IMG/VR virus record: IMGVR_UViG_3300042482_000462
Coordinates: 1 to 57,665 of that record
Reading direction: 5' to 3' (one strand)
Length of the DNA: 57,665 nt
Source of the DNA: a virus
Within the stretch, counting starts at the first letter, position 1, and each line of letters opens with the position of its first letter. Under the pieces are notes generated by a model that ran no database searches, had not been told where the DNA came from, and was given only the letters and a program-made list of their open reading frames with translations. The position numbers were made by a program, and so were the translations under genes. Below, in pieces: positions 37,401-57,665 of this stretch.

Positions 37401-40400
37401 AGTGGTCGACGCGCTGGGCACTCAGATCTACAAGGCCCCTGGCGGCCAGTGGCAACTGTCGGACGAGTACCTGTCCGGTGACGTGGTGGCCAAACTTGAG
37501 GAAGCCGAGCTTGCCGCGCGCCTTGACCCAAGCCTCGCGCGCAACGTGCAAGCTCTGAAGGAAGTTCAACCCGAGAAACTTGGCCCGTCGCAAATCAGCG
37601 TGAAGGCCGGCGCATCATGGGTTCCTGCGGAGTACGTCAATGACTTTGCCAAGGAAATCGGCGCAGGCGCTGTGACGTTCGATTCCAAGACCGAATCTTG
37701 GCAAGTCCAGGGCGGCAACGAGCGCAGCGCGCGCCGGGCTGGCGCTGAGTACGGCACCGCCGATCGTTCGCCTTCGGAGTTGCTGGAGTCTGTGCTGAAC
37801 AGCCAGAGCATCACGATCAAGCGCACCGATGCCGACAAGAAGGTTTACACCGACGCGGCGGCAACCACGGCGGCCAACGAAATGGCACGCAAGATCAAGG
37901 AGAAGTTCAAGGGGTGGGTGTGGACTGACGCCGACCGCGCAAGCAACCTGGTGGAGATCTACAACAAGCGCTTCAACAACATCGCGCCGCGCCGTTTCGA
38001 CGGCTCGCACATGACGCTGCCTGGGGTGAGCCTGCGGTTTAGCCTGCATCCGCACCAGAAGCGCGCGATCTGGCGCCAGGTGCAGACCGGCGACACCTAC
38101 CTTGCGCACGCGGTGGGCGCCGGCAAGACCATCGAAATGATTGCCGGCGGCATGGAGCAAAAGCGCCTTGGGCTCATCAGCAAGCCCATGTACGCCGTGC
38201 CAAACCACATGCTGGAGCAGTTCGCCAACGAGTTCATGGAGCTCTACCCGCTGGCCAACATCATGGTGGCCGACGACGAAAACTTCTCAGCCGAGCGCCG
38301 CAAGGCTTTTGTGGCCGCCGCCACCTTGAACGCCCCTGACGCCATTGTCATCACTCACAGCGCGTTTGAGCGCATTGGTGTGAAGGAGGAAACCGTCGCT
38401 CCCATCCGCGATGAGATTCTGGACGACCTTCAAACCGAACTGGAGGACAGCGACAAAGGCGACCGCGTGCGCCGGGCGCAGCTGCAGCAGCAGATCGAGG
38501 CTGTGGAACAGCGGTTTGACAGCATCGTCGGTGCCGGCAAGAAGGACTCGACCATCAAGTTCGAGGACATCGGCGCCGATTTTGTCTACGTGGATGAGGC
38601 CCACGCTTTCCGCAAGCTGGACTTCACGACGAACCAGAAGATCAAGGGCATTGACCCCAACGGGTCACGCAGGGCCCTGGATATGTACGTCAAGACCCGC
38701 TACCTGGGCCGCAAGAAGCCAGGTCGCGCAATGGTGTTTGCGTCTGGCACGCCGGTGACCAACACCATGGGCGAGCTTTACACCATCATGCGGTTCTTCT
38801 CACCCCAAGAGTTGAGCCGGGGTGGCATTGCAACCTTCGACGCTTGGGCGCGGCAGTTCGGCGAGGCAGTGCCTGCACTGGAAGCCAACGCCGCCGGCCG
38901 GTACGAGGTAGTGGAGCGCTTCGCCAAGTTTGACAACGTGCCCGAACTGATGTCACGAGTGCGGCAGTTCATGGACGTGCTGACGTCGGAACACCTGGGC
39001 GCCTTGGTCAAGCGGCCAGACATTGAGGGCGGCAAGCCTGACCTTATCACGGTAGATCCTACCGAGGCCCTGAAGAAGTACATGAAGGGCGTGCTTCTGC
39101 CGCGCCTGGAGCAGTCGCGCAAGTGGAAGCCGACGAAAGATCAGCCGTTCAACCCCGACCCCGTGATCGCCATCACCAGTGACGGCCGTTTTGCCGCGCT
39201 GGACCCGCGTTTTGTTGGGGAAAAGATCGACGAGAACGCAACCCCGACCAAGCTCACGCGCATGGCCGACGAGGTGGCGCAGATCTACAAGGCCAGCGCT
39301 GGCAACGAATACTTGGACAAGCAGGGCAAGCCAGAGCCTGTCAAGGGCAGCACGCAGATCGTGTTCTACAACCTGGGCTTTGGGGCGCAGTCGATGCAGA
39401 ACCGCGGCTTCGATGCGCGCGGCACTCTGACCAAGCGTCTGGTGGCGCAGGGCGTGAAGCGCGACCACATCCTGTGGTTTGATGATGCGGACACCGACTC
39501 CAAGAAGGAGACGATGTTCAAGGCCATGCGCAATGGCCAGGCCCGTGTGCTGATTGGCAGCGCCAAGAAGATGGGCACTGGTGTGAACGTGCAGAAACGC
39601 CTGCTGGCTCTGCACTACTTCGACCCGCCCTGGTATCCCAGCGACGTGGAGCAGCCGCACGGCCGCATCATCCGCCAGGGCAACCAAAACACACTGGCCA
39701 CCATCAAGTGGTACGCCACCAAGGGCACCTACGACAGCACCATGTGGCAGATGGTGGCACGCAAGCAGCGCTTTATCGACCAAGCGTTCAGCGGCGACAA
39801 GTCGCTGCGCACGATGGAGGACATGAGCGAAGCCAGCATGTTCGAGCAGGCCGCCGCGGTGGCCAGCGGAGACCCGAGGGCTTTGCAGTTGGCCGGGTTG
39901 CGCCAAGACGTGGAGCGACTGGAACGGCTGCAGGCGGCGCACGCCAGCGAGCAGATTGCACTGCGCAGCGGCCTGCGCAGTGCCGAGTGGAACATTGAGA
40001 GCTACGCCAAGCGGGTGAAGACCTACGGCGACGCATTCAAGGCCATCGGCGGCGGGTACTACAGCTTCAGCAGTGCAACGGTTGGCGGCAAGACATTCGA
40101 CAAGGTAGGTGAGTTCGGCCAGGCGCTGAAGGATGCTTTCAACCAGAAGGCCGCCGATGCAGTCATGGAACCGGGCACCAAGACGCGCGCCCTTGCCACG
40201 CTGCCATCTGGCATCACAGTCCGCATGGAGGCCAACGAAGACCGCGAAGGCAAGCCAACCGGCGAACATGAACTGGTGCTGCGTGCCGGGTCCGTCGACA
40301 TTCAGTTGACCGGCTACGCTGCCGCGCTGGGCGAGAAGGTTGACGCCGTGGGCCTTGGCCGGCGCGTCATCAACGCCGTCAACGGCATCGAGGCAGACTT

Positions 40401-43400
40401 GAACCGCGCCAAGTCGTCGCTGGCCAACGAGGAAACCGACGCGACGCGGCTGCGCAAGAAACTGGGCGCGCCTTTTGAGTATCAACAAGAACTGGCCGAG
40501 AAGATCGGCGACCTGAAGCGCCTGGAAGAAGAACTTCGCGCCGAAGGAGAGGCAGAAGCCCGCGCCGCGGCGGCAGAGGTGGTGATTGACGCCACGGGCG
40601 CCAGTGAAGCAGGACAGCCGCGCGCCGACGGCGCCGCGCAGTTCAGCCGCGCCACCGGCCAGTCCACCACCCCCGCCCAGCTTCGCACCGCCCTTGAAAC
40701 CGAGTTCAGCCCTGAAACCATCGGCGCCCTTGAGCGCGCTGGCCTGCTGACCATTGGCGACCGCCCGACCGCTGGCATGCCTTCAGACGCAGCTGGTGTG
40801 AGCCAGGGCGGCAGGATTGGCCTGTTCGCCGGCAACACCCGGCCGGGCTCGACAGCCGTCGCGTACCACGAAGCCCTTCACGCCACGCTCAAGACCAGCA
40901 TCGGCGAGCAGACCTACGCTGCGCTGCTGGACCGCCTGGCGGCCATCGACAGCAAGGCCATGGCCGGTGGGGCTACGCAGAAGTTCTTTGCCCAGGCGCG
41001 GGGTCGCATCCCTGCCGACCTGACGGGCACTGAGCGGCTGGAAGAACTTGCCGCGTACTCGGTCGAGGCCGTGCAAGCCGAACGCGAAGGCACGCCGCTG
41101 GCCATCAAGCGCTGGGTGAGCGACTTCCTGGCAGCGCTGCGCGCGGGGCTTTCCAAGGCACTGCAAGCGGCAGGTGTGGGCCTGCGCATCCGGGCGCGGC
41201 TGCTGGCCGACCCGGCAACGCTGCGGAAGATCGCGCGCGACGGGCTGCAGGCAATGGCAAGGCAGGGGATGCAGGGCGATGCTGCAATGGCGTTCAGCCA
41301 GCCAGCAGCCGGCCCGAAGTGGTACAGCGCACTGAAGCAGTCCATCGCAGGCCTGAGCATGGGCGCAGCGCCGGCCCAGGGTTGGAAGGACAGTATCAAG
41401 GGGCTGGTGGCCAAGGGCGCCGTGAAAGCTGATGAAATCGAATGGACCGGCATCAACGAGTTCTTGGACCTGCAGCAAGGCAAGGTCACCAAGGCCCAAG
41501 TGATGGCATTCATGGATGCCAACGGGGTGCAGGTAACCGAGACGGTGCTGTCTGACGAAGTAGCGCGTTCGCTGCCCGCTGGTTGGCAGGTTCTGCGCGG
41601 CTACGACGACACGTTCACTGTTTCTGATGGCGACGGCAACATCATGGGAGAGGGCGAAACGGCGGCAGAAGCCGTGGCCAACGCGCAAGACGAAGACGCA
41701 GCGGCGGACACGCCGTCAATGACCAAGTACGGCCGGTACACCCTGCCTGGCGGCACCAACTACCGCGAGGTGCTGCTGACGCTGCCCACCAAGTCGTCGG
41801 GAAAGTATTGGGCCGAAGACGTAGGCACTGTTCCCGGGGTCCAGAACTGGATGGTCGCATCAACGCGCGAATCAGATGGGGAAACCGTGTATCGCGGCAA
41901 GAGCCACGGTTCACGCCAATCAGCAGAGCGAGCCATTGCGGAACTTGAAGGCGCGAAGAACTACAAGTCCAGCCACTGGGACCAGCCCAACGTCCTGGCC
42001 CACATCCGCCTGAACGACCGCACGGATGCAGACGGCAACCGGGTGCTGTTTGTGGAAGAGGCCCAATCCGACTGGGGCCAGGATGGCAAGAAGAAGGGGT
42101 TTGCCAACCCTTCAATGAAGCCGCTCACCAACAAGGAGTACCAGGCCTATCTCGACGGCCTGGTGGATGAGTACGCAGACAAGTTTGCCAAAGAGGCTGG
42201 CAGCCGTAGGGATGCTGAACGCAACGCCATCAACATGCCTATGCGTGCACTCGCTGAGGCACTTGGCAAGGCCGACGAGCTCGCCACCATGAGGGCTCGC
42301 CGACAAATGGACATTGATGGCGTGGCCGCCGTCCCGCTTGCCCCATTCGTTGGCGCCACCGACAAGTGGCTCACACTGGCCCTGAAGCGCGTCATCAAGA
42401 TGGCCGTCGATGGCAGCTACGACAAGGTGGCCTTTGTCACGGGCGAGCAAAGCGCGGATCGGTATGACCTGAGCAAGCAGGTGGACTCCATCCGCATCAC
42501 ACGAGTGGGCGCCGATGAGTTTGATGTGGCCGCCGCCGTGAAGGGTGGCGGGCGGGGCATCAGCGAAACCGGCCTGTCACTTGCACGGCTTGAAGAAACT
42601 GTCGGCAAGGAGTTGGCAAAGCGCGGCGCTGCATTGCCCGAGGGCGTCGGCGAAACCTACACCGACACGGACCTGAAAGTCGGCGGCGAAGGCATGAAAG
42701 CCTTCTATGACCAGATCGTCCCTGCCGCTACCAAGGCCCTGCTGAAGAAGCTGGGCGGCGGGCAGATGGAGGCTGTACCAATCGCGGCAGTTGAACAAGG
42801 GTTGCGAGTCAAGCCGGTTGACAGCCCGTTTGGCAAATTTGTTCTTGTCGATGGAAGCGGCAAAGAAGTAGGACTATTTGAAACGGAAGCCGAGGCAAAG
42901 GCTTACATTCGCCAAGCGGCGAAGCCGCAGCCCGGATTCGCCATCACCCCCCAGATGCGCGAGAAGGCCAGCGGTGGAATGCCGCTGTTCAGCCGCACCG
43001 ACCAGACCGCCACCGAAGCATTCAAGCGCTGGTTGTCAGCGTCATTGGCATTCGACGGCCGGCCGGATGCCTTTGCGGCGGAACATGGCGGCGACAGCTT
43101 GGCGAGTGACGCCGCATTCGTGCGCAATTTCTTTGATACGCGAACCGTTCAAGAATTTGGACTTGGCGGCTTCGACATCCCAAGTCGGCGCGTTGTGATG
43201 CGTCGAGTGCTCGGAGTGCTTGAAGATTTCAAGATTCGCCAATCTGTTGTCCAACTTATCCCCGTTGATGTGGTGAACATCCTCGGAGCGAAGCAGCTTA
43301 CGCCCAAGATGCTTTTCAACGACATGGCGATGCTCACGGATTTGCTTGCCGGCAACCGTAATGATTCGATACCCCTTGCGGTCGATGAAACCGCAAAGGT

Positions 43401-46400
43401 TGCTGACGCTGTAGCAGCGGTGACTGCAGAACATCTTGCCGCGAACCCCAAGCTCGGAAGATCGTCTGGTAACGACGGTGCCGCATTGGGCGCAGGGCAT
43501 CGTGATGCTGCCGCCCTTCGCCAAAGCGGAGCAGGCGTGCTTGCAGTAGACATTCCCGCTGGGCGAAACGGCAGACGGGAACCGGAGAACGGGCGTGGAG
43601 CACTGAGCGCAAGAGTAGAGACTTTTCATGACAGGCAACGCATTAAACATGCGATAGCCTACAACGCAGAGTCCGGCACGTCAACAATAAAGACGTTCAA
43701 CCCCGCAAGCCCTGACATCAGATTTAGCCGCACCATGGGCGAGACTCTGCGCGAGGCCGTGCCATCCGCCGCACAAGAGTGGATTGCCGACCGCGCCACC
43801 TCACAGCGCGGGTTCAACCGCCCGTGGCACCGCACCGTGGGCACCCAACTGCACAAGGCCAAGATCAACAAGGACTTCGGCCGGGTGTACTACGCTGCCC
43901 AGGACTTCATGAAGGACGTAAGCCGGATTGCCACCCTGGCATCCGACCGCGCGCCCGACATGCTTCCCCAGATCGAAACCCTGTCTGACATGGCAAAGTT
44001 GGCGCCGAGCCTGGCAAGCCCCGCAGCCTACAAGCAGCGTAAGGCCGACATCAAGGGTGCGAGTGATGCGCTGTTTGACGGCACGCTGCGCTACACCCGA
44101 AACGACGACGGCGAAGCTGTGGCCGTGGATCCTGACAGCAATGAACTGGGCGGGCTGGTGTGGACAGACGCCGAACTGCGCGACCGTGGCATGAGCGAGC
44201 GGGCCATCAAGATGTACCGGCAAAGCCGTGAGGCCATCGACCAGAGCCTGGACAGTATGCTGGCGGCAGACCTGTTCCGCCAAGCCGGTGTACTGAAGCC
44301 TGAAATGCTGGCCGACACCCCGAGCGCGCACCAGGCGCTGCTGGACGGCATGCGCAAGGCCGCTGCGTCCGACAACCCAGCGCAGGTCGGGCAGATGCTG
44401 CGCGAGGCCATTCGCGGACAACTTGAATCGTTGGGCACGGCCCTGGAAGGTCAGCCCAACCAGTACACAGACGGCCTGAAGCAGCGCCAGCAGGAACTGC
44501 GCGACCTGCAGGTGGCCATTGGCGAGAAGATCGAGCGCATCGGTTCGCTGAAGGCATCCGGCTACGCTCCGTTGATGCGTTTCGGACCTTACGCCGTGGA
44601 CGTGATCGACGCTGACGGACAGCGCATTTTCTTTGGCCTGTACGAGGGCCAGGCCGCCGCCAACCAGGCCGCGCGCAACTTCCGTGGCCAAGGACTGCAG
44701 GTCAGCCAAAGCGTGATGCCGCAAAGCGACTTTGAAGCGCTGAAGGGTGTCAGCCCTGAAACGGCCATGCTGTTTGCTGAAATGCTGGGCGTGGAGAAGA
44801 ACGAGGCCATGCAGACGTGGTTGAAGAACGCGGTGGCCGAGCAGTCGGCCCTGAAGCGCCACATCCGCCGCAAGGGCATTGAAGGGTTTGACGAGGACGG
44901 CAGCCGCGTGCTGGCCGCTTTTGTGACCAGCAACGCCCGCGCCGCATCGCGCGCCCTGCACGCTACCCGCATGGCTGACGCTGTGGAGAACGTGCGCCAG
45001 GGTGACGTGAAGGACGAGGCCCGCGCGCTGGTTGAGTACATCAACAACCCCAAGGAAGAAGCGCAGGCCATCCGTTCGCTGCTGTTCGTGCAGTACATCG
45101 GCGGCAGCGTGGCGTCAGCGCTGGTGAACCTGACCCAGACCCTGGTGCAGACGCTGCCCTACCTGAGCCAGTACGGCGGGGCTGTGAAAGCCGGGCAGCG
45201 CCTTTCCGGGGCTATGAAACTGGCCCTGGCCGACAAGATCACAGACACGGAACTGTCCGACGCTGTGAAGCGCGCCGAGAAGGATGGCGTCATCAAGCCG
45301 CAGGAAGTTTTCCAGCTGCAGGCCGAGGCCAGCCGCAGCCTGGGGTCCAACCTGTACGTGCGATCACTGCTTTCGGCCTGGGGATCAATGTTCCAGATGG
45401 CCGAGGTGTTCAACCGCCGCGTGGCCTTCATCGGCGCCTACAACACCGCCAAGGAACAGGGGATTGCGGACCCGTTCGCTTTCGCGGAAAACGCGGTGGA
45501 TGAAACGCAGTCCGTGTTCAACAAGGGCAACCGGCCAAACTGGAGCCGCGGCGCCGTGGGTGCCACCTTGTTCACCTTCAAGACCTTCACCATCCAGTAC
45601 GTGGAATTCCTGAAGCGCCTTTCGACCGCTGGCGAGCCTGGCTCACCTGAGCGCAAGCAGGGTCAGCGCGCCGCTGCCGTGGCGCTGATGATGCTGATGA
45701 TCCTGTCGGGCATGAAAGGCATTCCGTTTGCTGATGATGCAGAGGATTTGGTTGACACCGTGGCGCAGGCCCTGGGCTACAACTGGGTGACCGATGCGCA
45801 GCGCGACCGCTGGCTGGACAAGATGCTGGGCGAAACCATGTCAGACATCGTGCAGCATGGCCTGAGCGGCGTGCCCGGTGTGCCGTTCGACGTGTCGCAG
45901 CGCCTTGGCATGGCAAACCTGCTGCCCGGCACCGGGCTGCTGAAGCAGTCGGAAACCAACAAGCAGAACCAGGTGCTGGAAGTATTTGGCGTGGCCGGGT
46001 CAGCGGTAAAGGATGCCACCCAAGGCCAGGTGCTTCCGTTGGCCATCCGCAACCTGATGAAAGGCCTGGACACCTACCAGACCGGCATGTACCGCGACAG
46101 CAGGGGGCGCAACGTGGTTGAGTCTGACGGCTTGGGCGCGGCATTGAAGGCCATAGGCCTGCAGCCTTCGCGGGTGGCCAGCGCCCAACGCGACATTGGC
46201 CGGCAGATCGAGGAACGCAACCTGTACAGTGCGGTGAAGGAAGAAATCACCGACGCCATGGCGCAAGCCCGCTTCGACAAAGACGCAAACGCCGCCAAAC
46301 AGGCTGCTGCTGCGCTGAATAAGTGGAACGACACCAACCCCGAGGCGCCCATCATCATCAAGTCCCACACCATTCAGGCCCGCGTGCGGCAGATGATGCG

Positions 46401-46473
46401 CAGCAAGGCAGAGCGCACCATTGCCAACGCGCCCCGGCCGCTGCGGGCCGCCACGGCAGAGGCCTTGCAGTGA
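31456..46473 (+). CDS. giant polyvalent virion protein, 5005 residues
   Basis: A single frame of 15,018 bp. Visible order: Gly-zipper hydrophobic segments (about 150-318); disordered Pro/Ala region; polyvalent-associated domain 'GIDPETMMDGITLAGYHVEK' (about 1180-1270); N6-adenine methylase with SAM motif 'EPGMGIGSF' (1522-1530) and NPPF (1587-1590); SF2/SNF2-type helicase with GAGKT (2221-2225), DEAH (2380-2383), SGTPVTNT (2430-2437) and 'QPHGRIIRQGNQN' (2733-2745); zincin HEALH (3138-3142); further polyvalent modules separated by FSR/FSQ tags; and a helical C-terminus with a hydrophobic patch. The methylase-helicase pair resembles P1 DarB, an injected antirestriction protein. Probably packaged and ejected, protecting DNA on entry. 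Confidence 0.85.
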   Translation: MPTLQELRTSIPELTGLDDSTAVEYIRRIHYPDRTAAEIGSRLGVKPAAPSVKPRSIPAAVNDTVIDFSNAVAGGVASIGNFVSPGNRVSKFIQDDIIQAGRANQSDATQAEDARYGQEMEAAQGIGDEVASTLGYVARNPIRSLATAAGSFVGPAAGVKAAQLAARGVGVSAGGVGAARAGMAGGALTGAALAGGDAGGTAYDLVIKAGGTPEQATEAARNASVIPAAVGGVGGMVGAERLLAGAKGFSGGRLAQIGKTAAVEGGQEFIEEGVTQYEGRRAAMPYDPTIDPMKGVAGAATMGAVLGAATGGAMAALKPQVPELGPLSRAANIAPDTTPEPPPPPVPLTPEQDATLKAHANARNAELTEKAKGTKDVKTPEGTIPGKQPEFLTPAEKEEQAFLQQNGGDTQALAKAYPGLTAEQEQRALANIQDFANEGQDRMRTFAPAPQPAPPRQPATVIRAEPEPRPQPPSFEPDLTTPAAIYESLNEIEQRNDQTRRMYAQQPGDRLNKQGKPFSNKAAAKIDQKKAGDGFAIVPADNGFVVRPVVGVSAEIPQMDADLPTLKKAWSDAAAAGRTEDAKVINDRILALKAPKNAPERQAPAQAEGTQAPAPAAVAGAAAPEADFSATGQPAVQAGGVDQKARWLKNVADSNRLAGPTGAQITGIENGRLNYAGDPRTSKQGKSLIASVDEALKAGATLAEIAQAAAPKPTSTNAAAPKVQPPAQVAGDRVAAAPRQGQVGDKFAAGEVALTASGRTTTPFPKVALDTNRKAAATIKAVDQWLMSNALAEAESRGDDFNARQFRANQTKPQQADKDSAEEYLFGDQPRVLPSITRPLISTAAAPPPQAQPAATAVARPNRRTKAVEAKAKEAESKRADYFSPGNIVKSFGGHDEVLSYTPTAGGGFTVKVHEVKKNDQGEWVRLGKPQDARQHATNPDARELAAGPVARLNPQPGAEVKYSEPRADGAPFQNAPGRGRAPVQDQANPAAPEPAPKTLKERREQAKATPGRNGPNVIINRLGPDGLTDAERAAGKKPYNDPPAPPADDKTVKSLFGNAPLKGASGKMDTLGGFSAGDRVKVSGRTIGDSTVEFLFTRDMAGFSEPGQMAQIVNADGKRLQVLTSELQRIDAAPDLQTSVAVRELAARAAALQTPPAAAPAPSANTVFTEDAAAAARARLKAKLGRLSSGIDPETMMDGITLAGYHVEKGARTFAAYARAMVDDLGDAVKPYLQSWYMALRADPKAAAFKADMDKASAIEDLTPPQIEALLAPNDANQTAQKAQNEAPKENPDDSPTSGSAPAVNQPLAQRPEPSTARRGAQQPRKRAGRADDRVVRGTGGLVESAADEGAPLGDGGKPDTVPAGADGTVAGGVQRVPTRDFRPAAGDLKREGSWFATAARNIDLIELALRIQAEKRVATPQEQAQLAKYVGFGASEIRNNLFPVPSQWARQQDPKRLIWPDLVREARWKPLAERMAALPEEWQRSVLQSTQYAHYTSEGVIRSVWSGLQRLGFTGGKVLEPGMGIGSFNMLMPDTVHATSRYTGVEFDGPTALIAQMLSPDQNMLHEDFIKRKFPRDFFDLAVGNPPFSQTKILGDPDYEKFGFMLHDFFFAKSLDRVRPGGLLVFVTSKGTMDKQSDKARKYLAERADLLGAIRLPSTAFEDNAGTSVVTDVLFLRKRAPGQEPAGPAWTGVQTIDTKDGPVVVNEYFAANPGMVLGEQRINGNVDDFGRRINSNGMGGAKYTVVSYDSTPEQLDERFAKAIESLPENVYSPLSANSEQVKRETAKVDFDPSIKREGVVYLGADGKLRRVQSGVGVALADGMKLSAKDEAWFKGYVGVRDMVQAARLAQVQDGDWEKALKALNKAYDAFRKEHGPINDFRTQTRRGTDEEGNEVTTEIRIFKNRRLFREDYDSAVMTQLEVINETGEIIKAPFLLGRTIGKPVVREVKTVGDALAVSLDETGRLDLDDIARRMSLRRDEVVDALGTQIYKAPGGQWQLSDEYLSGDVVAKLEEAELAARLDPSLARNVQALKEVQPEKLGPSQISVKAGASWVPAEYVNDFAKEIGAGAVTFDSKTESWQVQGGNERSARRAGAEYGTADRSPSELLESVLNSQSITIKRTDADKKVYTDAAATTAANEMARKIKEKFKGWVWTDADRASNLVEIYNKRFNNIAPRRFDGSHMTLPGVSLRFSLHPHQKRAIWRQVQTGDTYLAHAVGAGKTIEMIAGGMEQKRLGLISKPMYAVPNHMLEQFANEFMELYPLANIMVADDENFSAERRKAFVAAATLNAPDAIVITHSAFERIGVKEETVAPIRDEILDDLQTELEDSDKGDRVRRAQLQQQIEAVEQRFDSIVGAGKKDSTIKFEDIGADFVYVDEAHAFRKLDFTTNQKIKGIDPNGSRRALDMYVKTRYLGRKKPGRAMVFASGTPVTNTMGELYTIMRFFSPQELSRGGIATFDAWARQFGEAVPALEANAAGRYEVVERFAKFDNVPELMSRVRQFMDVLTSEHLGALVKRPDIEGGKPDLITVDPTEALKKYMKGVLLPRLEQSRKWKPTKDQPFNPDPVIAITSDGRFAALDPRFVGEKIDENATPTKLTRMADEVAQIYKASAGNEYLDKQGKPEPVKGSTQIVFYNLGFGAQSMQNRGFDARGTLTKRLVAQGVKRDHILWFDDADTDSKKETMFKAMRNGQARVLIGSAKKMGTGVNVQKRLLALHYFDPPWYPSDVEQPHGRIIRQGNQNTLATIKWYATKGTYDSTMWQMVARKQRFIDQAFSGDKSLRTMEDMSEASMFEQAAAVASGDPRALQLAGLRQDVERLERLQAAHASEQIALRSGLRSAEWNIESYAKRVKTYGDAFKAIGGGYYSFSSATVGGKTFDKVGEFGQALKDAFNQKAADAVMEPGTKTRALATLPSGITVRMEANEDREGKPTGEHELVLRAGSVDIQLTGYAAALGEKVDAVGLGRRVINAVNGIEADLNRAKSSLANEETDATRLRKKLGAPFEYQQELAEKIGDLKRLEEELRAEGEAEARAAAAEVVIDATGASEAGQPRADGAAQFSRATGQSTTPAQLRTALETEFSPETIGALERAGLLTIGDRPTAGMPSDAAGVSQGGRIGLFAGNTRPGSTAVAYHEALHATLKTSIGEQTYAALLDRLAAIDSKAMAGGATQKFFAQARGRIPADLTGTERLEELAAYSVEAVQAEREGTPLAIKRWVSDFLAALRAGLSKALQAAGVGLRIRARLLADPATLRKIARDGLQAMARQGMQGDAAMAFSQPAAGPKWYSALKQSIAGLSMGAAPAQGWKDSIKGLVAKGAVKADEIEWTGINEFLDLQQGKVTKAQVMAFMDANGVQVTETVLSDEVARSLPAGWQVLRGYDDTFTVSDGDGNIMGEGETAAEAVANAQDEDAAADTPSMTKYGRYTLPGGTNYREVLLTLPTKSSGKYWAEDVGTVPGVQNWMVASTRESDGETVYRGKSHGSRQSAERAIAELEGAKNYKSSHWDQPNVLAHIRLNDRTDADGNRVLFVEEAQSDWGQDGKKKGFANPSMKPLTNKEYQAYLDGLVDEYADKFAKEAGSRRDAERNAINMPMRALAEALGKADELATMRARRQMDIDGVAAVPLAPFVGATDKWLTLALKRVIKMAVDGSYDKVAFVTGEQSADRYDLSKQVDSIRITRVGADEFDVAAAVKGGGRGISETGLSLARLEETVGKELAKRGAALPEGVGETYTDTDLKVGGEGMKAFYDQIVPAATKALLKKLGGGQMEAVPIAAVEQGLRVKPVDSPFGKFVLVDGSGKEVGLFETEAEAKAYIRQAAKPQPGFAITPQMREKASGGMPLFSRTDQTATEAFKRWLSASLAFDGRPDAFAAEHGGDSLASDAAFVRNFFDTRTVQEFGLGGFDIPSRRVVMRRVLGVLEDFKIRQSVVQLIPVDVVNILGAKQLTPKMLFNDMAMLTDLLAGNRNDSIPLAVDETAKVADAVAAVTAEHLAANPKLGRSSGNDGAALGAGHRDAAALRQSGAGVLAVDIPAGRNGRREPENGRGALSARVETFHDRQRIKHAIAYNAESGTSTIKTFNPASPDIRFSRTMGETLREAVPSAAQEWIADRATSQRGFNRPWHRTVGTQLHKAKINKDFGRVYYAAQDFMKDVSRIATLASDRAPDMLPQIETLSDMAKLAPSLASPAAYKQRKADIKGASDALFDGTLRYTRNDDGEAVAVDPDSNELGGLVWTDAELRDRGMSERAIKMYRQSREAIDQSLDSMLAADLFRQAGVLKPEMLADTPSAHQALLDGMRKAAASDNPAQVGQMLREAIRGQLESLGTALEGQPNQYTDGLKQRQQELRDLQVAIGEKIERIGSLKASGYAPLMRFGPYAVDVIDADGQRIFFGLYEGQAAANQAARNFRGQGLQVSQSVMPQSDFEALKGVSPETAMLFAEMLGVEKNEAMQTWLKNAVAEQSALKRHIRRKGIEGFDEDGSRVLAAFVTSNARAASRALHATRMADAVENVRQGDVKDEARALVEYINNPKEEAQAIRSLLFVQYIGGSVASALVNLTQTLVQTLPYLSQYGGAVKAGQRLSGAMKLALADKITDTELSDAVKRAEKDGVIKPQEVFQLQAEASRSLGSNLYVRSLLSAWGSMFQMAEVFNRRVAFIGAYNTAKEQGIADPFAFAENAVDETQSVFNKGNRPNWSRGAVGATLFTFKTFTIQYVEFLKRLSTAGEPGSPERKQGQRAAAVALMMLMILSGMKGIPFADDAEDLVDTVAQALGYNWVTDAQRDRWLDKMLGETMSDIVQHGLSGVPGVPFDVSQRLGMANLLPGTGLLKQSETNKQNQVLEVFGVAGSAVKDATQGQVLPLAIRNLMKGLDTYQTGMYRDSRGRNVVESDGLGAALKAIGLQPSRVASAQRDIGRQIEERNLYSAVKEEITDAMAQARFDKDANAAKQAAAALNKWNDTNPEAPIIIKSHTIQARVRQMMRSKAERTIANAPRPLRAATAEALQ
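35336..35626 (+). CDS. 96-residue gene overprinted in the giant gene
   Basis: ATG 35336, in the +1 frame relative to the giant gene, has AAAGGAG (35322-35328) 7 bp upstream, a near-ideal ribosome-binding site. Its product is balanced and helical, with 'SRASELDEQMIESFEERED' and 'GTEESLTRFPLERMELWQEV'. The giant protein's own sequence over the same DNA (residues about 1294-1390) is low-complexity Arg/Pro/Gly/Ala. That contrast suggests the small frame is the constrained one. The function is unknown. It lies exactly between the polyvalent and methylase-helicase modules. Confidence 0.6.
   Translation: MIPPLQDLRLRSISRWLKDQSPALPAAVLNSRASELDEQMIESFEEREDSLKAQRMKERRWGTEESLTRFPLERMELWQEVCSEFLPVTSDQPQET
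43042..43650 (-). CDS. HNH homing endonuclease antisense within the giant gene
   Basis: 202 residues from ATG 43650 (AGG 7 bp upstream) or 195 from ATG 43629. Two zinc-ribbon Cys sets ('CAQCSTPV' ... 'CKHAC' and 'CAQCGTVV' ... 'CSHRC') are followed by the HNH_3-type core 'EHRHVVEKHLGRKLLRSEDV' and 'HHINGDKLDNRLANLEIFKH'. A C-terminal helix-turn-helix with 'EIAHECGVTRQAVAAMFRRK' would read the target. Homing endonucleases spread by cutting uninterrupted alleles. Its codons align with those of the giant frame, which stays open through it. Confidence 0.85.
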   Translation of the reverse strand: MFNALPVMKSLYSCAQCSTPVLRFPSAVSPSGNVYCKHACSALAKGGSITMPCAQCGTVVTRRSSELGVRGKMFCSHRCYSVSNLCGFIDRKGYRIITVAGKQIREHRHVVEKHLGRKLLRSEDVHHINGDKLDNRLANLEIFKHSEHSTHHNAPTWDVEAAKSKFLNGSRIKEIAHECGVTRQAVAAMFRRKGIRPAVECQ

Positions 46474-47166: not shown

Positions 47167-50100
47167 ATGCCGATAGCCGCTGCAGACCTATACACAGCGC
47201 CGTTGGGGACCGCAGTAGTGCGGTTTGGCAATGGGCTGGGTGTTCCGCAATTTACGCAACAGCCGGTGAGCGTTGTTGCCAATGCGCCAGCAGCGGCCAC
47301 ATTCACGGCCACGGTAATCGGGGCAACATCGCTCCAATGGCAGCGGACAGCGCCAGGCGGCGGGGCGTTTTCCGACATCAGCGGCGCCACTTCAAGCAGC
47401 TATACAACCGCAGCTACCGATGACATTCATGACAGCGGAAGGCAGTACCGGTTACTTGCCTCAAACCCTGCCGGGGAGACGTTCAGCAATGTCGTGACGC
47501 TGACAGTACTGCGCAGTGTGGCGCCAGTCACAGGAACCATACCGCAGTACCTGACAAGCGATGGCGGCATTGCTGCAGCCGGCATGAACTACTCTGGTCC
47601 TACACGAACCAAGTGGCACAACAGGCTTGGTTTCGACTGGATCAGGCCCAACACCATGGGCAACTGGCGTGATTCTGCACAGGTGGCTGAGGGCGCGACG
47701 CCGTTTGCATCGTCGGCTGCAGTTACGACAGTGGGCCAGGTGGTAAGCATCACAGCCACGGCTCTGCTCAATCGCTGGATCAGCACAGGCCACAACAGGG
47801 GTGCTTATCTGGCTGTCACCAGCGGCAGTCTCTTCCCTGTCGTATTCCATGGGCGGACTGACCCAACGCCAGCGCTGCGCCCGAGGCTGACGGTGGTCAC
47901 GTCAACGGGAACGTTCGTATTGACGGCGCAGTGCAATGCCTGGTGGTCAATCAGCTCGTTCACGGCCGCTGGCAGCGCTGCTGAATGGCGCCTGTCACGG
48001 GACCAATCGCCCGGCGTGCTACGTTTTGACTTGAGCACACTGACCGGAACGGTGACCAGCGCCACGCTGGCATTCACCGTGAAGAGTTTCCCGAACGGCG
48101 GCAGCACGGGCCAGGTGATCGGTTTGTTTGAGCTGGACCCGCCAGGCATCATTGACCCCACGGGCGTGCAATCCCCGGTAGCTGGCCTGCTTACCGGGTA
48201 CTCCACATTCAATGCCTTCAAGTCGGCCGGCCTGTCGTCTGTGCTTTTGGCTGATGACTTCGAGTCACCAGGCCCATTCGATGCTGGCTTTACGCCACCT
48301 GCCACGCGCGCCCTGAACCAGGGCACTGGCACCACCTATGCGCGCGGCACCATCGCAAGCGGCGGCGCCCCAGATTCCGGCACCCCCAGTGCAGACAACA
48401 ACAAGGCGGTCAGTTCAGGAACTGGGCTTCGCGGGGCGCCGAACGTGGTGTATGAGGAGTTGTTCGGCCACTACGCCTGGTACATGGAGTCAACCTTCGG
48501 CACGACGCAGGAAGACGCCATCAAGATCCCGGCAATGGGCGTGCAGTTTGGCATATGGAATCCGGTGGGCTACTGGCAGCAAACCACCGGGAATGGCGGC
48601 TCCCGCGGCACCGGCTTGAAGGTAGACCGAGGCGGATCAACAAACTTTGAATACCAGGGCCACAGCATTCGACTGCTGACCGGTACGTCACCAAAGGCAG
48701 GGGACGACGACCCCTACAACGGGCTGTTCGGTCTGGGCGTGTACCCGTACAACCTGGACCAAGTGGATGACAACCCGGCCGGCGAAGCAGTGCCATACGT
48801 GGCACTGAAACGCGAAACGTGGTACGACATCGACATTAGGGTCAAGCAAAACACCGTTACAGGCGCGCAAGACGTGCTTGGCAACTACGCAACCGCCAAC
48901 GCTGACGGCATTTACCAGATCTGGATCAATGGTCTGCTGGTCTACAGCAAGACGACATTCCGCTGGCGCCGTCATCTGGAATTTGGCGTGCAAGGGTTGT
49001 GGATTGATGTGTACCACGGCGGCAAAACTCCTGCGCTTGTTGACATGCACTACCGTGTTGACCGGGCGGCCATCGCCACTGCTTACATCGGCCCGCCGCT
49101 GAACGCTATTCCAGTCTGGGTCACGTCAATCACACCGGGGGAAATGGCGACGTACACAGGTGGCGGTTCGGTGGTCACCAACAACTTCAGGTCGGTGGTG
49201 TCGCCCCTGTACGACGAGTTTTACTCGGTCAAGATCGTCAATGACTTCTCCGGTGCCGCGGCCAATCCTTGGTGGGGCACGCTGGGCGCCAAGATGTTCA
49301 AGGGCGCTGGGCATTCTGCGTCAAACGACAACAGCACGATGGTTCTGGAGTATGGCCAGACAACGATGACGTGGAAGCGGGTTGTAGACCCCAGTCCGTG
49401 GACCTATTCAGGTACAGGGGCTCCGCGCGACACCAGCGCAGAGTACACAAACCAGATGAACTACACCTGGGGCGAGTACCTGGTTGATGGCAAGCCGATG
49501 TCTTTGCACAGCTACGGGATGCTATGTGTGCAAGGCCCAGACGCTGGCGGCGCAGCCAACGGAACGATGTTGCTGCCCGCAATACTTGCCGGGCAGGTGG
49601 GCAGCTTCAAAGCGCAAGCAGCGCACGCTCTGCCTCTGACGAGCACCACTACGGCGCCGGTCTGGGCGCGTGCCAGTACAACCGCTCCCACAATCAGCGG
49701 TGACCCGGTTGGCCTTGCCGCTTACGTGCCGGCTCAGCGCCGTGTGTACCTGACCTACGGCAACGACTCCGGGGTGGTCCGGTGGCTTGACACTGTGACT
49801 CAATCATGGGTCACCGGGTCAGGGACAGGTTTTGCCCTGGCGCAGCACCTGTACGCAGCCGGCGAGTTCTACGCCACGATGGTCGCGGTGCCGGAACGAG
49901 ACTTGCTGCTCGTACTGGGCCGTTCAAACACAACTGGCAACCTAGTCATCCAATGGATGGCTGTCGGCGCCGCAGTCAATCAGCCAACCCTTGGCGGCAC
50001 AGCCGCGCTGTCGGCTGCGCTGACGCTTGAAACGCCGTGGACATCAGCGACATGGTGCCCGGACAACGGGAAGTTGCTGATCATCGGCGTGGCTGGCGAC

Positions 50101-50331
50101 TTGGGCGCGGTCCACGAAGTGGCCATACCAACGCTTCCGGCGTCGCAGACATGGCAGGTCACGCGCGTGCCATTGGGCGCCGGGCAAACGCTCAGCAACA
50201 CGATGGCTGGCTCTGTCGGCAACGTGTTCGGCAAGTGGGGCTATGACCGCAGGATCAAAGCGGTGGTGTTTGTGCCCGTGGTCAGTCTGTCGAACGACCA
50301 GGTGTACGTTTACCGACCGCTCAATACCTAA
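47167..50331 (+). CDS. large tail fibre or receptor-binding protein with Ig-like domain
   Basis: 1054 residues. Residues about 30-115 form an Ig-like domain ('FTQQPVSVVANAPAAATFTA', then 'SLQWQRTAPGG' and 'SDISGATSSSYTTAA'). The rest is a very long beta-rich chain with 'WYDIDIRVKQNTVTGAQDVL'-type strands resembling a polysaccharide-lyase or LamG-like part in the centre and propeller-like repeats at the end. It probably binds, and may cut, surface glycans. No catalytic residue can be named. Confidence 0.6.
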   Translation: MPIAAADLYTAPLGTAVVRFGNGLGVPQFTQQPVSVVANAPAAATFTATVIGATSLQWQRTAPGGGAFSDISGATSSSYTTAATDDIHDSGRQYRLLASNPAGETFSNVVTLTVLRSVAPVTGTIPQYLTSDGGIAAAGMNYSGPTRTKWHNRLGFDWIRPNTMGNWRDSAQVAEGATPFASSAAVTTVGQVVSITATALLNRWISTGHNRGAYLAVTSGSLFPVVFHGRTDPTPALRPRLTVVTSTGTFVLTAQCNAWWSISSFTAAGSAAEWRLSRDQSPGVLRFDLSTLTGTVTSATLAFTVKSFPNGGSTGQVIGLFELDPPGIIDPTGVQSPVAGLLTGYSTFNAFKSAGLSSVLLADDFESPGPFDAGFTPPATRALNQGTGTTYARGTIASGGAPDSGTPSADNNKAVSSGTGLRGAPNVVYEELFGHYAWYMESTFGTTQEDAIKIPAMGVQFGIWNPVGYWQQTTGNGGSRGTGLKVDRGGSTNFEYQGHSIRLLTGTSPKAGDDDPYNGLFGLGVYPYNLDQVDDNPAGEAVPYVALKRETWYDIDIRVKQNTVTGAQDVLGNYATANADGIYQIWINGLLVYSKTTFRWRRHLEFGVQGLWIDVYHGGKTPALVDMHYRVDRAAIATAYIGPPLNAIPVWVTSITPGEMATYTGGGSVVTNNFRSVVSPLYDEFYSVKIVNDFSGAAANPWWGTLGAKMFKGAGHSASNDNSTMVLEYGQTTMTWKRVVDPSPWTYSGTGAPRDTSAEYTNQMNYTWGEYLVDGKPMSLHSYGMLCVQGPDAGGAANGTMLLPAILAGQVGSFKAQAAHALPLTSTTTAPVWARASTTAPTISGDPVGLAAYVPAQRRVYLTYGNDSGVVRWLDTVTQSWVTGSGTGFALAQHLYAAGEFYATMVAVPERDLLLVLGRSNTTGNLVIQWMAVGAAVNQPTLGGTAALSAALTLETPWTSATWCPDNGKLLIIGVAGDLGAVHEVAIPTLPASQTWQVTRVPLGAGQTLSNTMAGSVGNVFGKWGYDRRIKAVVFVPVVSLSNDQVYVYRPLNT

Positions 50332-50343
50332 CCGAAAACAGCC

Positions 50344-51828
50344 ATGGCAGTCACTCATATCTCCAGCTTCAGCGGCGGCACAAACTTTTCCGCTACGCAC
50401 AGTGAAGCAGGCGTTGCTTGCGGCACTGGATCGAATCGGGTTGCATACGTTCTGCTGGGGCGCATCAACAACAGCACCCCTGAGCCCACGACTTGCAGCG
50501 TAGGGTCTGACACGCTTACAGCCAGTGGTGCTGGGCCGTTCACGGACAGCACAGGGCGCAAGTGGCGCCTGTTCTCTGGCGCCCTGACAGTCACGGGAAC
50601 ACAGACCGTTTCCGGGGCCTGGAGCACCGATGACGGTTTTGCTCTGATGTCCGGTGTGATCTTGCAAGTGGCAGACAGCGCAACCCACATTGCCGATCTG
50701 GTTACGGGCGCTGCTGTGAGCAGCACGGCCATGGATCTGACGGTGGCCGCCAGCGGTGCAGGCGACGCCGTGCTTCTGAGCTACCAAAATGACGGCCACC
50801 TAGTCACGACTGGCGCTGGTACAACAGCACTTCCCGCCCAGGACGGCGTAAACGGCACGCCGGCTCCTATCTACTTCCAGGCGCTCACAGAAGCCATTTC
50901 CGGCGCGGGCAACGTAGTCATCGGCGGTACGACAGCAACGCCCGCAGAGTGGCGCGCGGTTGCGTTCCGTGTCCCTTCTGATTCAGGCGGTACGCCGCCG
51001 ACGATCACGTTGCAGCCGACCAATCAAACGGTAACGGCGCCTGCAACGGCAACGTTTACCGCGTCGGCAACCGGTTCGCCAACACCGACAGTACAGTGGC
51101 AGCGCAACGGCACCAACATCAGCGGGGCGACATCCTCCAGTTACACGACGCCGTCCACGGCAGTGACGGGCGGCTCAGCCAACAACGGTGACGTTTACTC
51201 GGCGCGCTTTACAAACGCTTTAGGGTTTGTGCAGACATTGAATGTGACGCTGACGGTCAGTGCTTCCGGCACAGCTCCCAGCATTGCGGTACAGCCAGCT
51301 AGCCAATCTGTGTTTTCTGGGGCTACTGCGACTTTCACGGTTTCGGCTGCGGGCAGCGGCACGCTTACCTACCAGTGGCGCCGCAATGGGTCGAACATCA
51401 GCGGGGCCACATCAGCCAGCTACACCACACCGGCAACGACAGTGGCTGGTGGATCAGCCAACAGCGGCGATGTCTACAGCGTGGTGGTGACTGGCGACAC
51501 GTCGCCGGCCGCGACGAGCAGCAACGCGACGCTTACGGTCACCGCGGCGGCCACCTTCAGCATGACCTTCGGGCCATTTGCCCTGAATACAGGTGCTGGC
51601 CAGCGGGTTGCTGGTGAGGCTTTTGACTGGTGGGCATTTTCTGGGGTGGTGATCGGCGGCGACATCGACGCAGCGACACGGCGCAGGGGATCTGGCACTT
51701 TGAACGCATCTGGCCTTGCAGTCATTGCCGGCTTGCCTTCGGCCGGAAGTTGGGAGGTGCAGGTGCGGTTCCCGGGTGATGCAGAGCCCGAAAAGGGCAC
51801 CATGCGCGACACCTTGACGGCGGCCTGA
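50344..51828 (+). CDS. tail protein with two tandem Ig-like domains
   Basis: 494 residues. An N-terminal beta domain (1-215) is followed by two closely similar Ig-like repeats (about 219-305 and 306-395): each has 'QWxRNGxNISGATSxSYTTP' and 'GGSANxGDVYS'. A short C-terminal domain follows. Ig-like modules in phage virions bind weakly to surface carbohydrates. The same module, in another order, is present in the 1054-residue protein upstream. Confidence 0.65.
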   Translation: MAVTHISSFSGGTNFSATHSEAGVACGTGSNRVAYVLLGRINNSTPEPTTCSVGSDTLTASGAGPFTDSTGRKWRLFSGALTVTGTQTVSGAWSTDDGFALMSGVILQVADSATHIADLVTGAAVSSTAMDLTVAASGAGDAVLLSYQNDGHLVTTGAGTTALPAQDGVNGTPAPIYFQALTEAISGAGNVVIGGTTATPAEWRAVAFRVPSDSGGTPPTITLQPTNQTVTAPATATFTASATGSPTPTVQWQRNGTNISGATSSSYTTPSTAVTGGSANNGDVYSARFTNALGFVQTLNVTLTVSASGTAPSIAVQPASQSVFSGATATFTVSAAGSGTLTYQWRRNGSNISGATSASYTTPATTVAGGSANSGDVYSVVVTGDTSPAATSSNATLTVTAAATFSMTFGPFALNTGAGQRVAGEAFDWWAFSGVVIGGDIDAATRRRGSGTLNASGLAVIAGLPSAGSWEVQVRFPGDAEPEKGTMRDTLTAA

Positions 51829-55600: not shown

Positions 55601-55690
55601 ATGACCGCCTTTCGACAATGGCTTGCAGACAAGCTCCAGCGCCTTGCAGAAATCCTGCGCGGCGGTGTGGGCGGCCCTGGCGAAGAATGA
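55601..55690 (+). CDS. small amphipathic peptide, 29 residues
   Basis: ATG 55601 has AAGGA 6 bp upstream, and the stop overlaps the next ATG as ATGA. 'FRQWLADKLQRLAEILRGG' would form an amphipathic helix. As first gene of the lysis block it could act on the membrane, but this is unproven. Confidence 0.5.
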   Translation: MTAFRQWLADKLQRLAEILRGGVGGPGEE

Positions 55691-56100
55691 ACGACCGTGC
55701 CGCCACCGCTGCAGGCGCTGCCTTGCTTTTGCTGGTGGTTGTGACGCACTTTCGCTATCACGACATAGCCGCATGGCTGTACCCGGAGCGTGCTGAGTAC
55801 GCATCCCGGGCGCTGTTCTACGTGCTGCGTGGCGTGTCTGGTGCGCTTGTCTTCGCTGCCCTGATGCTGTTTGCTCCCCCCGCAATCCTGCTACGCATCG
55901 CTTGCTCAGTCGGCATGTTTGCCGAGGGCGCGACTGCTTTTTGCCGGGCTTCGTATCCGCTGGATCAGCCGATTCCAGCCGGTGCAAACGCTGGTGGTTT
56001 GTGTGACGCGGCTACGCGCGAGCCGGTCACTGCAATGCTTGCGGGTGGGGTAGCGGTATCGCTGCTGTGGCTGGGGCGACAAAAGAAGGGCGCGCGATGA
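55687..56100 (+). CDS. multi-span membrane protein, lysis-associated
   Basis: 137 residues from ATG 55687 (ATGA overlap). Hydrophobic runs at about 8-24, 46-80 and 118-130 suggest three to four spans; a Cys-rich loop ('CSVGMFAEGATAFCRASYP') lies between. Candidate holin or antiholin by location next to lysozyme. Confidence 0.5.
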   Translation: MNDRAATAAGAALLLLVVVTHFRYHDIAAWLYPERAEYASRALFYVLRGVSGALVFAALMLFAPPAILLRIACSVGMFAEGATAFCRASYPLDQPIPAGANAGGLCDAATREPVTAMLAGGVAVSLLWLGRQKKGAR

Positions 56101-56456
56101 TCGAAGAATCCGGTACCAAGTTGCTGGCCACTGCTGTGCTCGCAGGCATTGCCGTGGCGCTGGACACCTACGGCTGGACAGTCGCCTGTGCGACTGCTGG
56201 GGCCTATTGGGCTGTCAGCGGAATGGAAACCAAGACCAAGGGCCATGCCGCCGCCTGCATGTTGCGCTGGGTGCTTGTGTCCGTGATCTTCAGTGAGCTT
56301 GTGGTCGCCCTGTCGGCGCAGCACATGGGCGTGAAGGCCGAACTGATGCAGGGGCCTATCGCTTTCCTGCTCGCATTTTGGGGCGACCGCTGGCGCGATG
56401 TCCCGGGTCTTTTGTCACGCGCCGTTGAGCGCATATTCCCCAGGAAGCAGCCATGA
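56097..56456 (+). CDS. holin-like membrane protein, 119 residues
   Basis: ATGA-linked. Hydrophobic runs 'LLATAVLAGIAVALDTYG', 'VACATAGAYWAVSG', 'MLRWVLVSVIFSELVVALSA' and 'GPIAFLLAFWGD' give three to four spans with a basic C-terminus ('RAVERIFPRKQP'), a common holin layout. Holins make lesions that release lysozyme. Confidence 0.55.
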   Translation: MIEESGTKLLATAVLAGIAVALDTYGWTVACATAGAYWAVSGMETKTKGHAAACMLRWVLVSVIFSELVVALSAQHMGVKAELMQGPIAFLLAFWGDRWRDVPGLLSRAVERIFPRKQP

Positions 56457-56755
56457 GTGATGTAGAGCTGTTGCGCGTGTGGCTGTACGCAATCGGGTGC
56501 GTCGTCATCGCCGTGACGATGTTTTGCAGGGCGGTGCACATGGATCGTCACCGGGCGGTGCTGCCGATCCGAATCGCGGTGACGTGCGGCGGCAGCGCTG
56601 CGGTGTGGTGCTTGTACAGCCTGACGGACGGCCATGTGCCAAGTTGGCCGGACCTTGCGATGGTGGCGGCTTGGGGCGTTATGCTGGTGACGACTTCACG
56701 CCTGTGGGAATACGGCCTGCCAAACGAGTTTGAGCAGTCGGTTCAGTTTGATTAG
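56453..56755 (+). CDS. three-span membrane protein, 100 residues
   Basis: ATGA-linked to the gene before. Spans near 8-30, 38-58 and 67-88 with short charged loops and an acidic end. It could be a holin or accessory lysis protein; which of the three membrane genes is the true holin cannot be decided from sequence. Confidence 0.5.
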   Translation: MSDVELLRVWLYAIGCVVIAVTMFCRAVHMDRHRAVLPIRIAVTCGGSAAVWCLYSLTDGHVPSWPDLAMVAAWGVMLVTTSRLWEYGLPNEFEQSVQFD

Positions 56756-56763
56756 GTGAAACC

Positions 56764-57665
56764 GTGACAACCCGCGAACAGGGCATTGCAGCCATCAAGG
56801 CCCACGAAGGGCTGCGGCTGCAGGCGTACCCTGACCCTGGCAGCGGCGGTGAGCCTTGGACCATCGGGTGGGGTCGAGCGCACGGCGTCAAGCGTGGCGA
56901 CATCGTTACGATTGAGCAAGCCGAGCAGTTCCTGGCCGAAGACATCGAGACAGCGCAGGCCGGCATCCGTGAACTAGTCAAGGTGCCGCTGACGGATGGC
57001 CAGCTATGGGCGCTGACCAGCTTTGTCTTCAACCTCGGGGCGGGCGCTCTGCGCAAATCCACGCTGCTGAAGCGGCTCAACGCTGGCGACTATGCCGGTG
57101 CTGCTGGGCAGTTCGGGCTGTGGGTCAACGCAGCCGGTAAGCCAATGCCGGGCCTGGTGCGCAGGCGCGCGGAAGAAAAGGCCATGTTTCTTTCTGGCGG
57201 TTCTTTGAACACGTCGCCGGAACCTGTACAGAAAACGCCCGAAACCGAACACGTCAAGGAGGCCCACGTGGCACTACCCGCAATCCTCGCAGCGCTGCTG
57301 CCGTCGCTGATCCAGGTGGTCCCAAAGCTGGGCAAGATGTTCGGCAGCGGATCTGATGTGTCAGAGCGCAACGTCGCCGCCGTGACCATGGCAATGGATG
57401 TCGCCAAAGAGGCGTTGGGCGCCAAGAGCGCGCAAGAGGCCATCGAGACGGCGCTGGCTGATCCTGAGGCCGCGCAGCAAGTGCGCCAGGCCGTCGAGTC
57501 GCGTTGGCTGGAATTGTCGGAAGCCGGCGGTGACGGCATCGCCGGGGCGCGCAAAGCCGATGCCGAGGCGCGAGCGTCCGCTGAAAGCGTATGGAAAAGC
57601 CCGAGTTTCTGGTTTCTGGTGTTCGCCATGCCGCTGGTCTACATGATCGTTGGCAGTGTCGTTGG
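56764..57665 (+). CDS. T4-type (GH24) lysozyme fused to holin-like segment, cut by edge
   Basis: GTG 56764 with AGGTGA upstream opens a frame of over 300 residues to the edge. Residues 1-145 are a GH24 lysozyme: catalytic E15 in 'KAHEGLRLQAYPD', D24 and T33 in 'WTIGWG', then 'FNLGAGALRKSTLLKRLN' and 'GLVRRRAEEKAMF'. It cleaves the glycan backbone of peptidoglycan. A 20-residue linker leads to a second part with an Ala-rich helix and the membrane span 'FWFLVFAMPLVYMIVGS'. The second part begins at a possible internal start. Confidence 0.8.
   Translation, partial: MTTREQGIAAIKAHEGLRLQAYPDPGSGGEPWTIGWGRAHGVKRGDIVTIEQAEQFLAEDIETAQAGIRELVKVPLTDGQLWALTSFVFNLGAGALRKSTLLKRLNAGDYAGAAGQFGLWVNAAGKPMPGLVRRRAEEKAMFLSGGSLNTSPEPVQKTPETEHVKEAHVALPAILAALLPSLIQVVPKLGKMFGSGSDVSERNVAAVTMAMDVAKEALGAKSAQEAIETALADPEAAQQVRQAVESRWLELSEAGGDGIAGARKADAEARASAESVWKSPSFWFLVFAMPLVYMIVGSVV
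57256..57270 (+). promoter_or_regulatory. internal ribosome-binding site and GTG start
   Basis: AAGGAGG (57256-57262) lies 5 bp before GTG 57268, in frame with the lysozyme (codon 169). A product starting here would be only the holin-like part, beginning 'VALPAILAALLPSLIQVV'. The site is the strongest ribosome-binding site in the lysis block. Confidence 0.5.

What the first reader, a model, noticed from the sequence alone, without database searches (positions are those of the whole stretch)
56764..57665. Lysozyme and holin-like part in one frame with an internal start site
GH24 lysozyme with intact E-D-T residues runs into a membrane-spanning part. AAGGAGG-5-GTG at 57256-57270 could start the second part alone. 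One gene may make both a membrane-tethered lysozyme and a separate holin-like protein, an economical lysis timer.
Basis: partly seen in the sequence, partly recalled or inferred. Interest (0 to 1): 0.74.

Follow-up and report, generated by a model that had tools for sequence, protein, structure and literature searches.

The report
Two-start lysozyme–membrane protein lysis gene
One phage gene appears to make both a wall-cutting enzyme tethered to the cell membrane and, from a second start site inside the same frame, the membrane part alone; the same membrane part with its own start signal sits behind three unrelated kinds of wall-cutting enzyme in many related phages, so the inner start is very probably real.

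Summary
At 56764-57665 a GH24 lysozyme (PF00959, E=2.7e-42; E15/D24/T33) runs in frame into a membrane module with AAGGAGG-5-GTG at 57256-57270. The contig ends inside the module (about 43 residues missing).

Searching with the module alone found 36 viral contigs and several Burkholderiales prophages. All window-type modules whose upstream flank was held are fused in frame behind an endolysin: GH24, GH19 or lambda-R-like. In 37 non-redundant fusions a Shine-Dalgarno match of >=5 nt lies just upstream of an ATG/GTG at the module boundary in 33 (>=4 nt in 37), versus 31 of 644 other in-frame ATG/GTG codons of the same genes (Fisher P=6e-34) and 0 of 14 control two-domain endolysins. Flanking residues vary while GGAG persists. 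Distant stand-alone relatives sit beside endolysin genes in other prophages.

Most likely the gene makes a cytoplasm-facing, membrane-tethered endolysin plus a separate two-TM membrane protein. 'Holin' is plausible but unproven: the module is unnamed (phrog_1544), linked only remotely to GTA holins, and other holin candidates lie upstream. This is a new variant of the 'two-polypeptide endolysin gene', known in phages of Gram-positive and mycobacterial hosts.

The parts
56764..57665 (+). Fused lysis gene (endolysin + membrane module), 300 codons held, truncated by the record end
56754..56759 (+). AGGTGA, Shine-Dalgarno of the full-length start GTG 56764
   Evidence: duplex -3.7 kcal/mol
56764..57192 (+). 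GH24 lysozyme domain, E15/D24/T33 intact
   Evidence: PF00959 2.7e-42; 9kbq 1.9e-33
57193..57267 (+). Linker carrying the internal RBS; closely similar linker DNA in L143 behind a lambda-R-like enzyme, and in L002 behind the same GH24 enzyme but before a different module
   Evidence: the corresponding linker of L159 is low-confidence (pLDDT about 50) in the model
57256..57262 (+). Internal Shine-Dalgarno AAGGAGG
57268..57270 (+). Internal start codon GTG
   Evidence: ATG/GTG at this place in all 37 non-redundant fusions
57268..57665 (+). Membrane module (phrog_1544-like), first 132 of about 175 residues
   Evidence: 66% identical to the L145 module; MOD HMM 1.7e-55, built without the window
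57598..57663 (+). First transmembrane helix of the C-terminal hairpin (second lies beyond the record)
56097..56456 (+). Small multi-TM protein, holin candidate; homologue upstream of the fused gene in L173
   Evidence: 29% identity, pairwise E 4e-10; phrog_198 holin only 0.048 for the L173 homologue
56453..56755 (+). Small hydrophobic (about 3 TM by eye) protein between holin candidate and lysozyme
   Evidence: weak
55618..56100 (+). Hydrophobic protein at the head of the presumed lysis cassette; overlaps the next gene

Best explanation
A two-product lysis gene. Translation from GTG 56764 gives a GH24 endolysin whose C-terminus is a membrane module (amphipathic helix, helical bundle, two-TM hairpin), which by charge leaves the enzyme on the cytoplasmic face of the inner membrane. 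Translation from the strong internal site AAGGAGG-5-GTG 57268 gives the module alone. The two products probably assemble together, so the enzyme is docked on patches of a holin-like membrane protein and reaches the wall when the membrane opens. Shown by comparison: the fused open frame, its swapping between three enzyme types, and a conserved internal RBS. Inferred: that both proteins are made, their co-assembly, topology, and holin-like action of the short form.
For: Search with module sequences only returned window-type modules that, wherever the upstream flank was held, are in-frame fusions: 23 lambda-R-like, 17 GH19, 5 GH24 including the window (R-like = lambda lysozyme 1am7 4e-23; GH19 endolysins). 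SD>=5 nt at the boundary in 33/37 versus 31/644 other in-frame starts, Fisher 6e-34; 0/14 controls. Pairing energy median -7.7 versus -2.2 kcal/mol (P 2e-22). Residues K/Q/P/T before and A/K/Q/S/P after the Glu vary while GGAG stays; synonymous-codon null expects 21.4 SD sites, 32 seen, P=6e-8. Mosaic joints: window and L002 share enzyme plus linker but not module; window and L143 share linker plus module but not enzyme. Stand-alone relatives sit beside endolysin genes, e.g. L109 GH19 stop, 1 nt, ATG. Tail more positive than loop in 33/33, so N-in/C-in.
Against: No protein product measured. No direct holin-family match for the module; structure searches insignificant (best E 0.13). Other holin candidates upstream. 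Four of 37 sites have only a 4-nt SD. The window copy is truncated. Known C-terminal-TM endolysins LysAP and M4Lys have no comparable internal start, so tethering does not require a second product. Related sequences inflate the P values.
Confidence: 0.75

Rival explanations
1. Only the fused protein matters; the internal SD/start is a relic of the time when the module was a separate downstream gene, and makes little or nothing.
For: Stand-alone relatives placed directly after endolysin genes with their RBS inside the endolysin end (L109, L099, L101) give a route by loss of a stop. Endolysins with C-terminal TM domains work without an internal start (LysAP, M4Lys; PMC8879335, PMC7143992).
Against: A relic should decay: GGAG plus ATG/GTG kept in nearly all of 37 divergent fusions across three enzyme classes while neighbouring residues change.
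Confidence: 0.15
2. The short product is an antiholin or lysis regulator rather than the hole-former; the holin is the small TM protein upstream.
For: Recognised holin upstream in L149 (phrog_2359 3.4e-13); small TM genes upstream in the window and most inspected relatives.
Against: Remote link of the module family to GTA holins (L113 to PF11351, 3.6e-5, just below cut-off); top weak fold matches include a GTA-type holin. In M4Lys the TM part alone stops growth (PMC7143992).
Confidence: 0.3
3. Membrane-tethered endolysin acting without a holin, as proposed for Enc34/M4Lys/LysAP endolysins: the C-terminal membrane part itself brings the enzyme to the wall.
For: Same order of parts, enzyme then two-helix TM domain (PMC8943055); full-length M4Lys lyses alone (PMC7143992).
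Against: Charge pattern predicts the N-terminal enzyme on the cytoplasmic side; no internal start in LysAP or M4Lys.
Confidence: 0.2
4. Assembly or reading error joined two genes.
For: The gene lies at the contig end.
Against: 44 other fusions from other contigs/genomes, including complete ones.
Confidence: 0.01

Closest known systems
Two-polypeptide (iTSS type II) endolysin genes of phages of Gram-positive and mycobacterial hosts (PMC9430671; CTP1L, LysIME-EF1 as cited in PMC12203907)
   Same: In-frame internal RBS/start between enzyme and C-terminal part; both products share the stop codon
   Different: There the short product is a cell-wall-binding domain; here it is a membrane module, apparently in Gram-negative phages. 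The 2022 survey left Gram-negative phages out, judging internal starts unlikely in them
C-terminal-TM endolysins: Enc34 ORF39, BSPM4 M4Lys, Acidovorax AP1 LysAP (PMC8943055, PMC7143992, PMC8879335)
   Same: N-terminal peptidoglycan hydrolase, C-terminal TM helices, upstream holin-like gene; LysAP is GH24
   Different: Short TM tail, no SD-plus-start at the boundary in LysAP or M4Lys; here a 175-215 aa module shared by three enzyme folds
PHROG phrog_1544 (unknown function) and PF11351 GTA_holin_3TM
   Same: Module relatives match phrog_1544 (3.9e-7 to 1.8e-5); stand-alone member L113 borderline PF11351
   Different: Stand-alone genes; window module itself matches neither above cut-off
Lambda S dual-start motif holin/antiholin
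   Same: Two starts in one lysis gene give two membrane proteins
   Different: From general knowledge; starts two codons apart, no enzyme domain

Membership tests
GH24 phage lysozyme | PF00959 domain above cut-off | tested here: met
   144.5 bits vs 22.3
GH24 phage lysozyme | E-D-T catalytic residues | tested here: met
   E15, D24, T33 aligned to solved lysozyme 9kbq
Two-polypeptide (iTSS) endolysin gene | In-frame internal RBS and start between domains | tested here: met
Two-polypeptide (iTSS) endolysin gene | C-terminal part is a cell-wall-binding domain (type II) or enzyme plus CBD (type I) | tested here: not met
   C-terminal part is a membrane module
Two-polypeptide (iTSS) endolysin gene | Both polypeptides shown to be made | not testable with these tools
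   needs expression or mass spectrometry
C-terminal-TM endolysin (Enc34/M4Lys/LysAP type) | Enzyme domain followed by C-terminal TM helices | tested here: met
   one helix seen in the window, two in complete homologues
C-terminal-TM endolysin (Enc34/M4Lys/LysAP type) | Homology of the TM part to those proteins | tested here: inconclusive
   tblastn of modules against INPHARED, which holds AP1 and BSPM4, found nothing
Holin (GTA_holin_3TM, PF11351) | Profile match above cut-off | tested here: not met
   No match for the window or fused modules tested; only remote stand-alone L113 at 24.7 vs 24.8 bits
Holin | Makes the membrane permeable to endolysin | not testable with these tools
   needs expression assay
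SAR endolysin | N-terminal signal-arrest-release helix | tested here: not met
   lysozyme domain begins at residue 12, no N-terminal hydrophobic stretch

The most novel reading that the evidence does not exclude
Hole-former and endolysin come from one frame: the short product is a true holin and the full-length form a holin-endolysin hybrid built into the same membrane patches, so the ratio of two starts sets lysis timing and places the enzyme at the hole. The module with its own RBS is a transferable lysis unit that has captured at least three unrelated endolysin folds.
Probability: 0.35. Interest if true: 0.8.

Novelty: new variant of a known kind. Interest (0 to 1): 0.64.

Why it matters
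Endolysins of Gram-negative phages are usually taken to be single products, and the 2022 survey of internal starts left them out for that reason. Here a conserved internal start separates enzyme from membrane module in at least 37 divergent genes with three enzyme folds. It gives a concrete system for asking whether holin and endolysin can be made from one gene in a fixed ratio, and points to an unnamed family (phrog_1544) as a lysis component. Annotation pipelines would call these simply 'lysozyme' and miss the second product.

Tried and rejected
Searches with the window's own truncated module as a single sequence found nothing in phage isolates, viral contigs or genomes; the L002 module, then phrog_1544 hits, then alignment A5 were needed. 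Pfam, NCBIfam and PHROG scans gave no name to the window module or its closest relatives. PDB sequence search and fold searches gave no significant relative; the top two viral fold hits (VHML ORF20, a GTA-type holin) are suggestive only. Considered and rejected: SAR endolysin (no N-terminal TM), sequencing error (44 other fusions). L149's holin is not similar to the window's upstream gene; L173's is. In one search L158's start was mis-set; corrected. The paper searches found no description of this arrangement; the library is partial.

Full report
Observation. The window is a complete IMG/VR record of 57,665 bases, a linear fragment. Its last gene, 56764-57665, is open to the end. Residues 12-138 are a GH24 lysozyme (PF00959, E=2.7e-42), with E15, D24 and T33 matching the E-D-T of solved lysozymes. 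The frame continues without a stop through a linker and into a hydrophobic part. Pairing with the 16S tail is -11.4 kcal/mol there, against -3.7 at the gene's own start.

Relatives. Protein searches with the whole gene mostly find lysozymes alone. One contig, L002, carries a complete 383-aa fusion. DNA identity between window and L002 is 87% over 56765-57297 only, that is enzyme, linker and internal start, and falls beyond it. The L002 module led to L085 and L086, where a similar module sits behind a GH19 endolysin. The phrog_1544 family gave Burkholderiales prophage loci, some fused and some stand-alone. An alignment of the window-type module (A5) then found 36 viral contigs and further genome loci. 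In every one of the 36, the module is in frame behind an endolysin; in two genome loci (L119, L125) the upstream part lies outside the contig. The query was the module alone, so fusion was not selected for.

Enzymes. Of 45 fusions, 23 carry a lambda-R-like enzyme, 17 a GH19 and 5 a GH24 enzyme. The R-like group matches lambda lysozyme 1am7 (4e-23), GH19 matches solved phage endolysins. The window's module is 66% identical to that of L145, which has a GH19 enzyme. The linker and module start of L143, behind an R-like enzyme, are closely similar in DNA to the window's. So the window shares enzyme plus linker with L002, and linker plus module with L143: parts are exchanged at the linker.

Internal start. 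At the module boundary all 37 non-redundant fusions have an ATG or GTG with a Shine-Dalgarno match of at least 4 nt, 33 of at least 5 nt. Other in-frame ATG/GTG codons of the same genes: 31 of 644 at >=5 nt (Fisher 6e-34). Fourteen two-domain endolysins with other C-terminal domains: none in the linker zone. Residues around the site vary (TKE, SQE, PKE, APE, STE, PEK) while the nucleotides GGAG stay in nearly all. With the amino acids held fixed and codons resampled, 21.4 sites are expected and 32 seen (P=6e-8; one start in that run was mis-set and lowers the count by one). Four fusions use GTG; no other valine codon occurs there. Sequences are related, so P values overstate independence; the spread over three enzyme folds and 27-66% module identity to the window is the stronger argument.

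The module. In a 32-sequence alignment AlphaFold gives an all-helical model (mean pLDDT 74): helix 5-25, a bundle 30-78, helix 90-103, then two long helices 111-131 and 140-169. In the L159 full-length model the lysozyme is confident, the linker is not, and the internal Met lies at the end of the linker just before the first module helix (Met position from coordinates). Net charge is -1.1 in the loop between the TM helices and +2.1 in the tail, tail above loop in 33 of 33, so N and C termini are probably cytoplasmic, and the enzyme is held on the cytoplasmic face. This is inference from the positive-inside rule.

Function. The module matches phrog_1544 (unknown function; 3.9e-7 to 1.8e-5). Stand-alone relatives sit beside cell-wall enzymes: after a GH19 gene with stop, 1 nt, ATG in L109; right after what look like GH108-type genes in L099 and L101 and near a transglycosylase-like gene in L091; before an M15-type peptidase in L113 (the GH108, transglycosylase and M15 calls are by eye). 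L113 reaches PF11351 GTA_holin_3TM at 24.7 bits against a cut-off of 24.8. So the module is a lysis-cassette membrane protein, holin-like at the level of remote similarity and context. Other small TM genes lie upstream: in the window 56097-56456, related to L173's, and 56453-56755; L149 has a recognised holin. The short product could therefore be holin, antiholin or dock.

Comparison. Gram-positive phages often make two polypeptides from one endolysin gene; the survey of Pinto et al. excluded phages of Gram-negative hosts because single-domain enzymes made internal starts unlikely (PMC9430671). There the short product is a wall-binding or enzyme-plus-binding part (PMC12203907). Enzyme-then-TM endolysins are known (Enc34, M4Lys, LysAP; PMC8943055, PMC7143992, PMC8879335), but LysAP and M4Lys show no SD-plus-start at the boundary. 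No isolate in INPHARED carries the module at tblastn sensitivity. I found no paper describing the combination, in a partial library. I file it as a new variant of a known kind.

Limits. No expression data; window copy truncated; host of the window not established (relatives point to Burkholderiales); genomes were sampled only in that order and family, and fusions occur in roughly 7 of 399 genomes of the family (with L086).

Noticed in passing
window 31456-46473: A single 5,005-codon ORF; its end matches DarB-like antirestriction (phrog_10089, 7e-29) and phrog_11358 (7e-199), unknown function.
   Followed up: partly
window 23222-24883: Internal virion protein family phrog_511 (1e-115), with phrog_8003 structural protein at 28052-29998.
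   Followed up: no
window 47167-51828: Two neighbouring genes with tail/Hoc-like decoration domains (phrog_3995, phrog_4069) a few genes before the lysis region.
   Followed up: no
L011:2246-3181: GH24 lysozyme with a single C-terminal TM helix of the LysAP type, different in layout from the two-TM module.
   Followed up: no
L101, L123, L126 and a fourth place in genome G513: Four stand-alone phrog_1544 modules in one genome; L101, the one read closely, follows directly on what looks like a GH108-type endolysin end.
   Followed up: partly
L151 and L152: Identical fused genes in two contigs whose enzyme and linker resemble L141 but whose TM hairpin differs, suggesting exchange inside the module too.
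   Followed up: no
L086:2829-3173, L145:1894-2160, L167:2099-2347, L117 (minus strand, upstream gene): Recurrent one-TM coiled-coil protein directly or nearly directly upstream of the fused gene; weak spanin/hemolysin-like matches only.
   Followed up: partly
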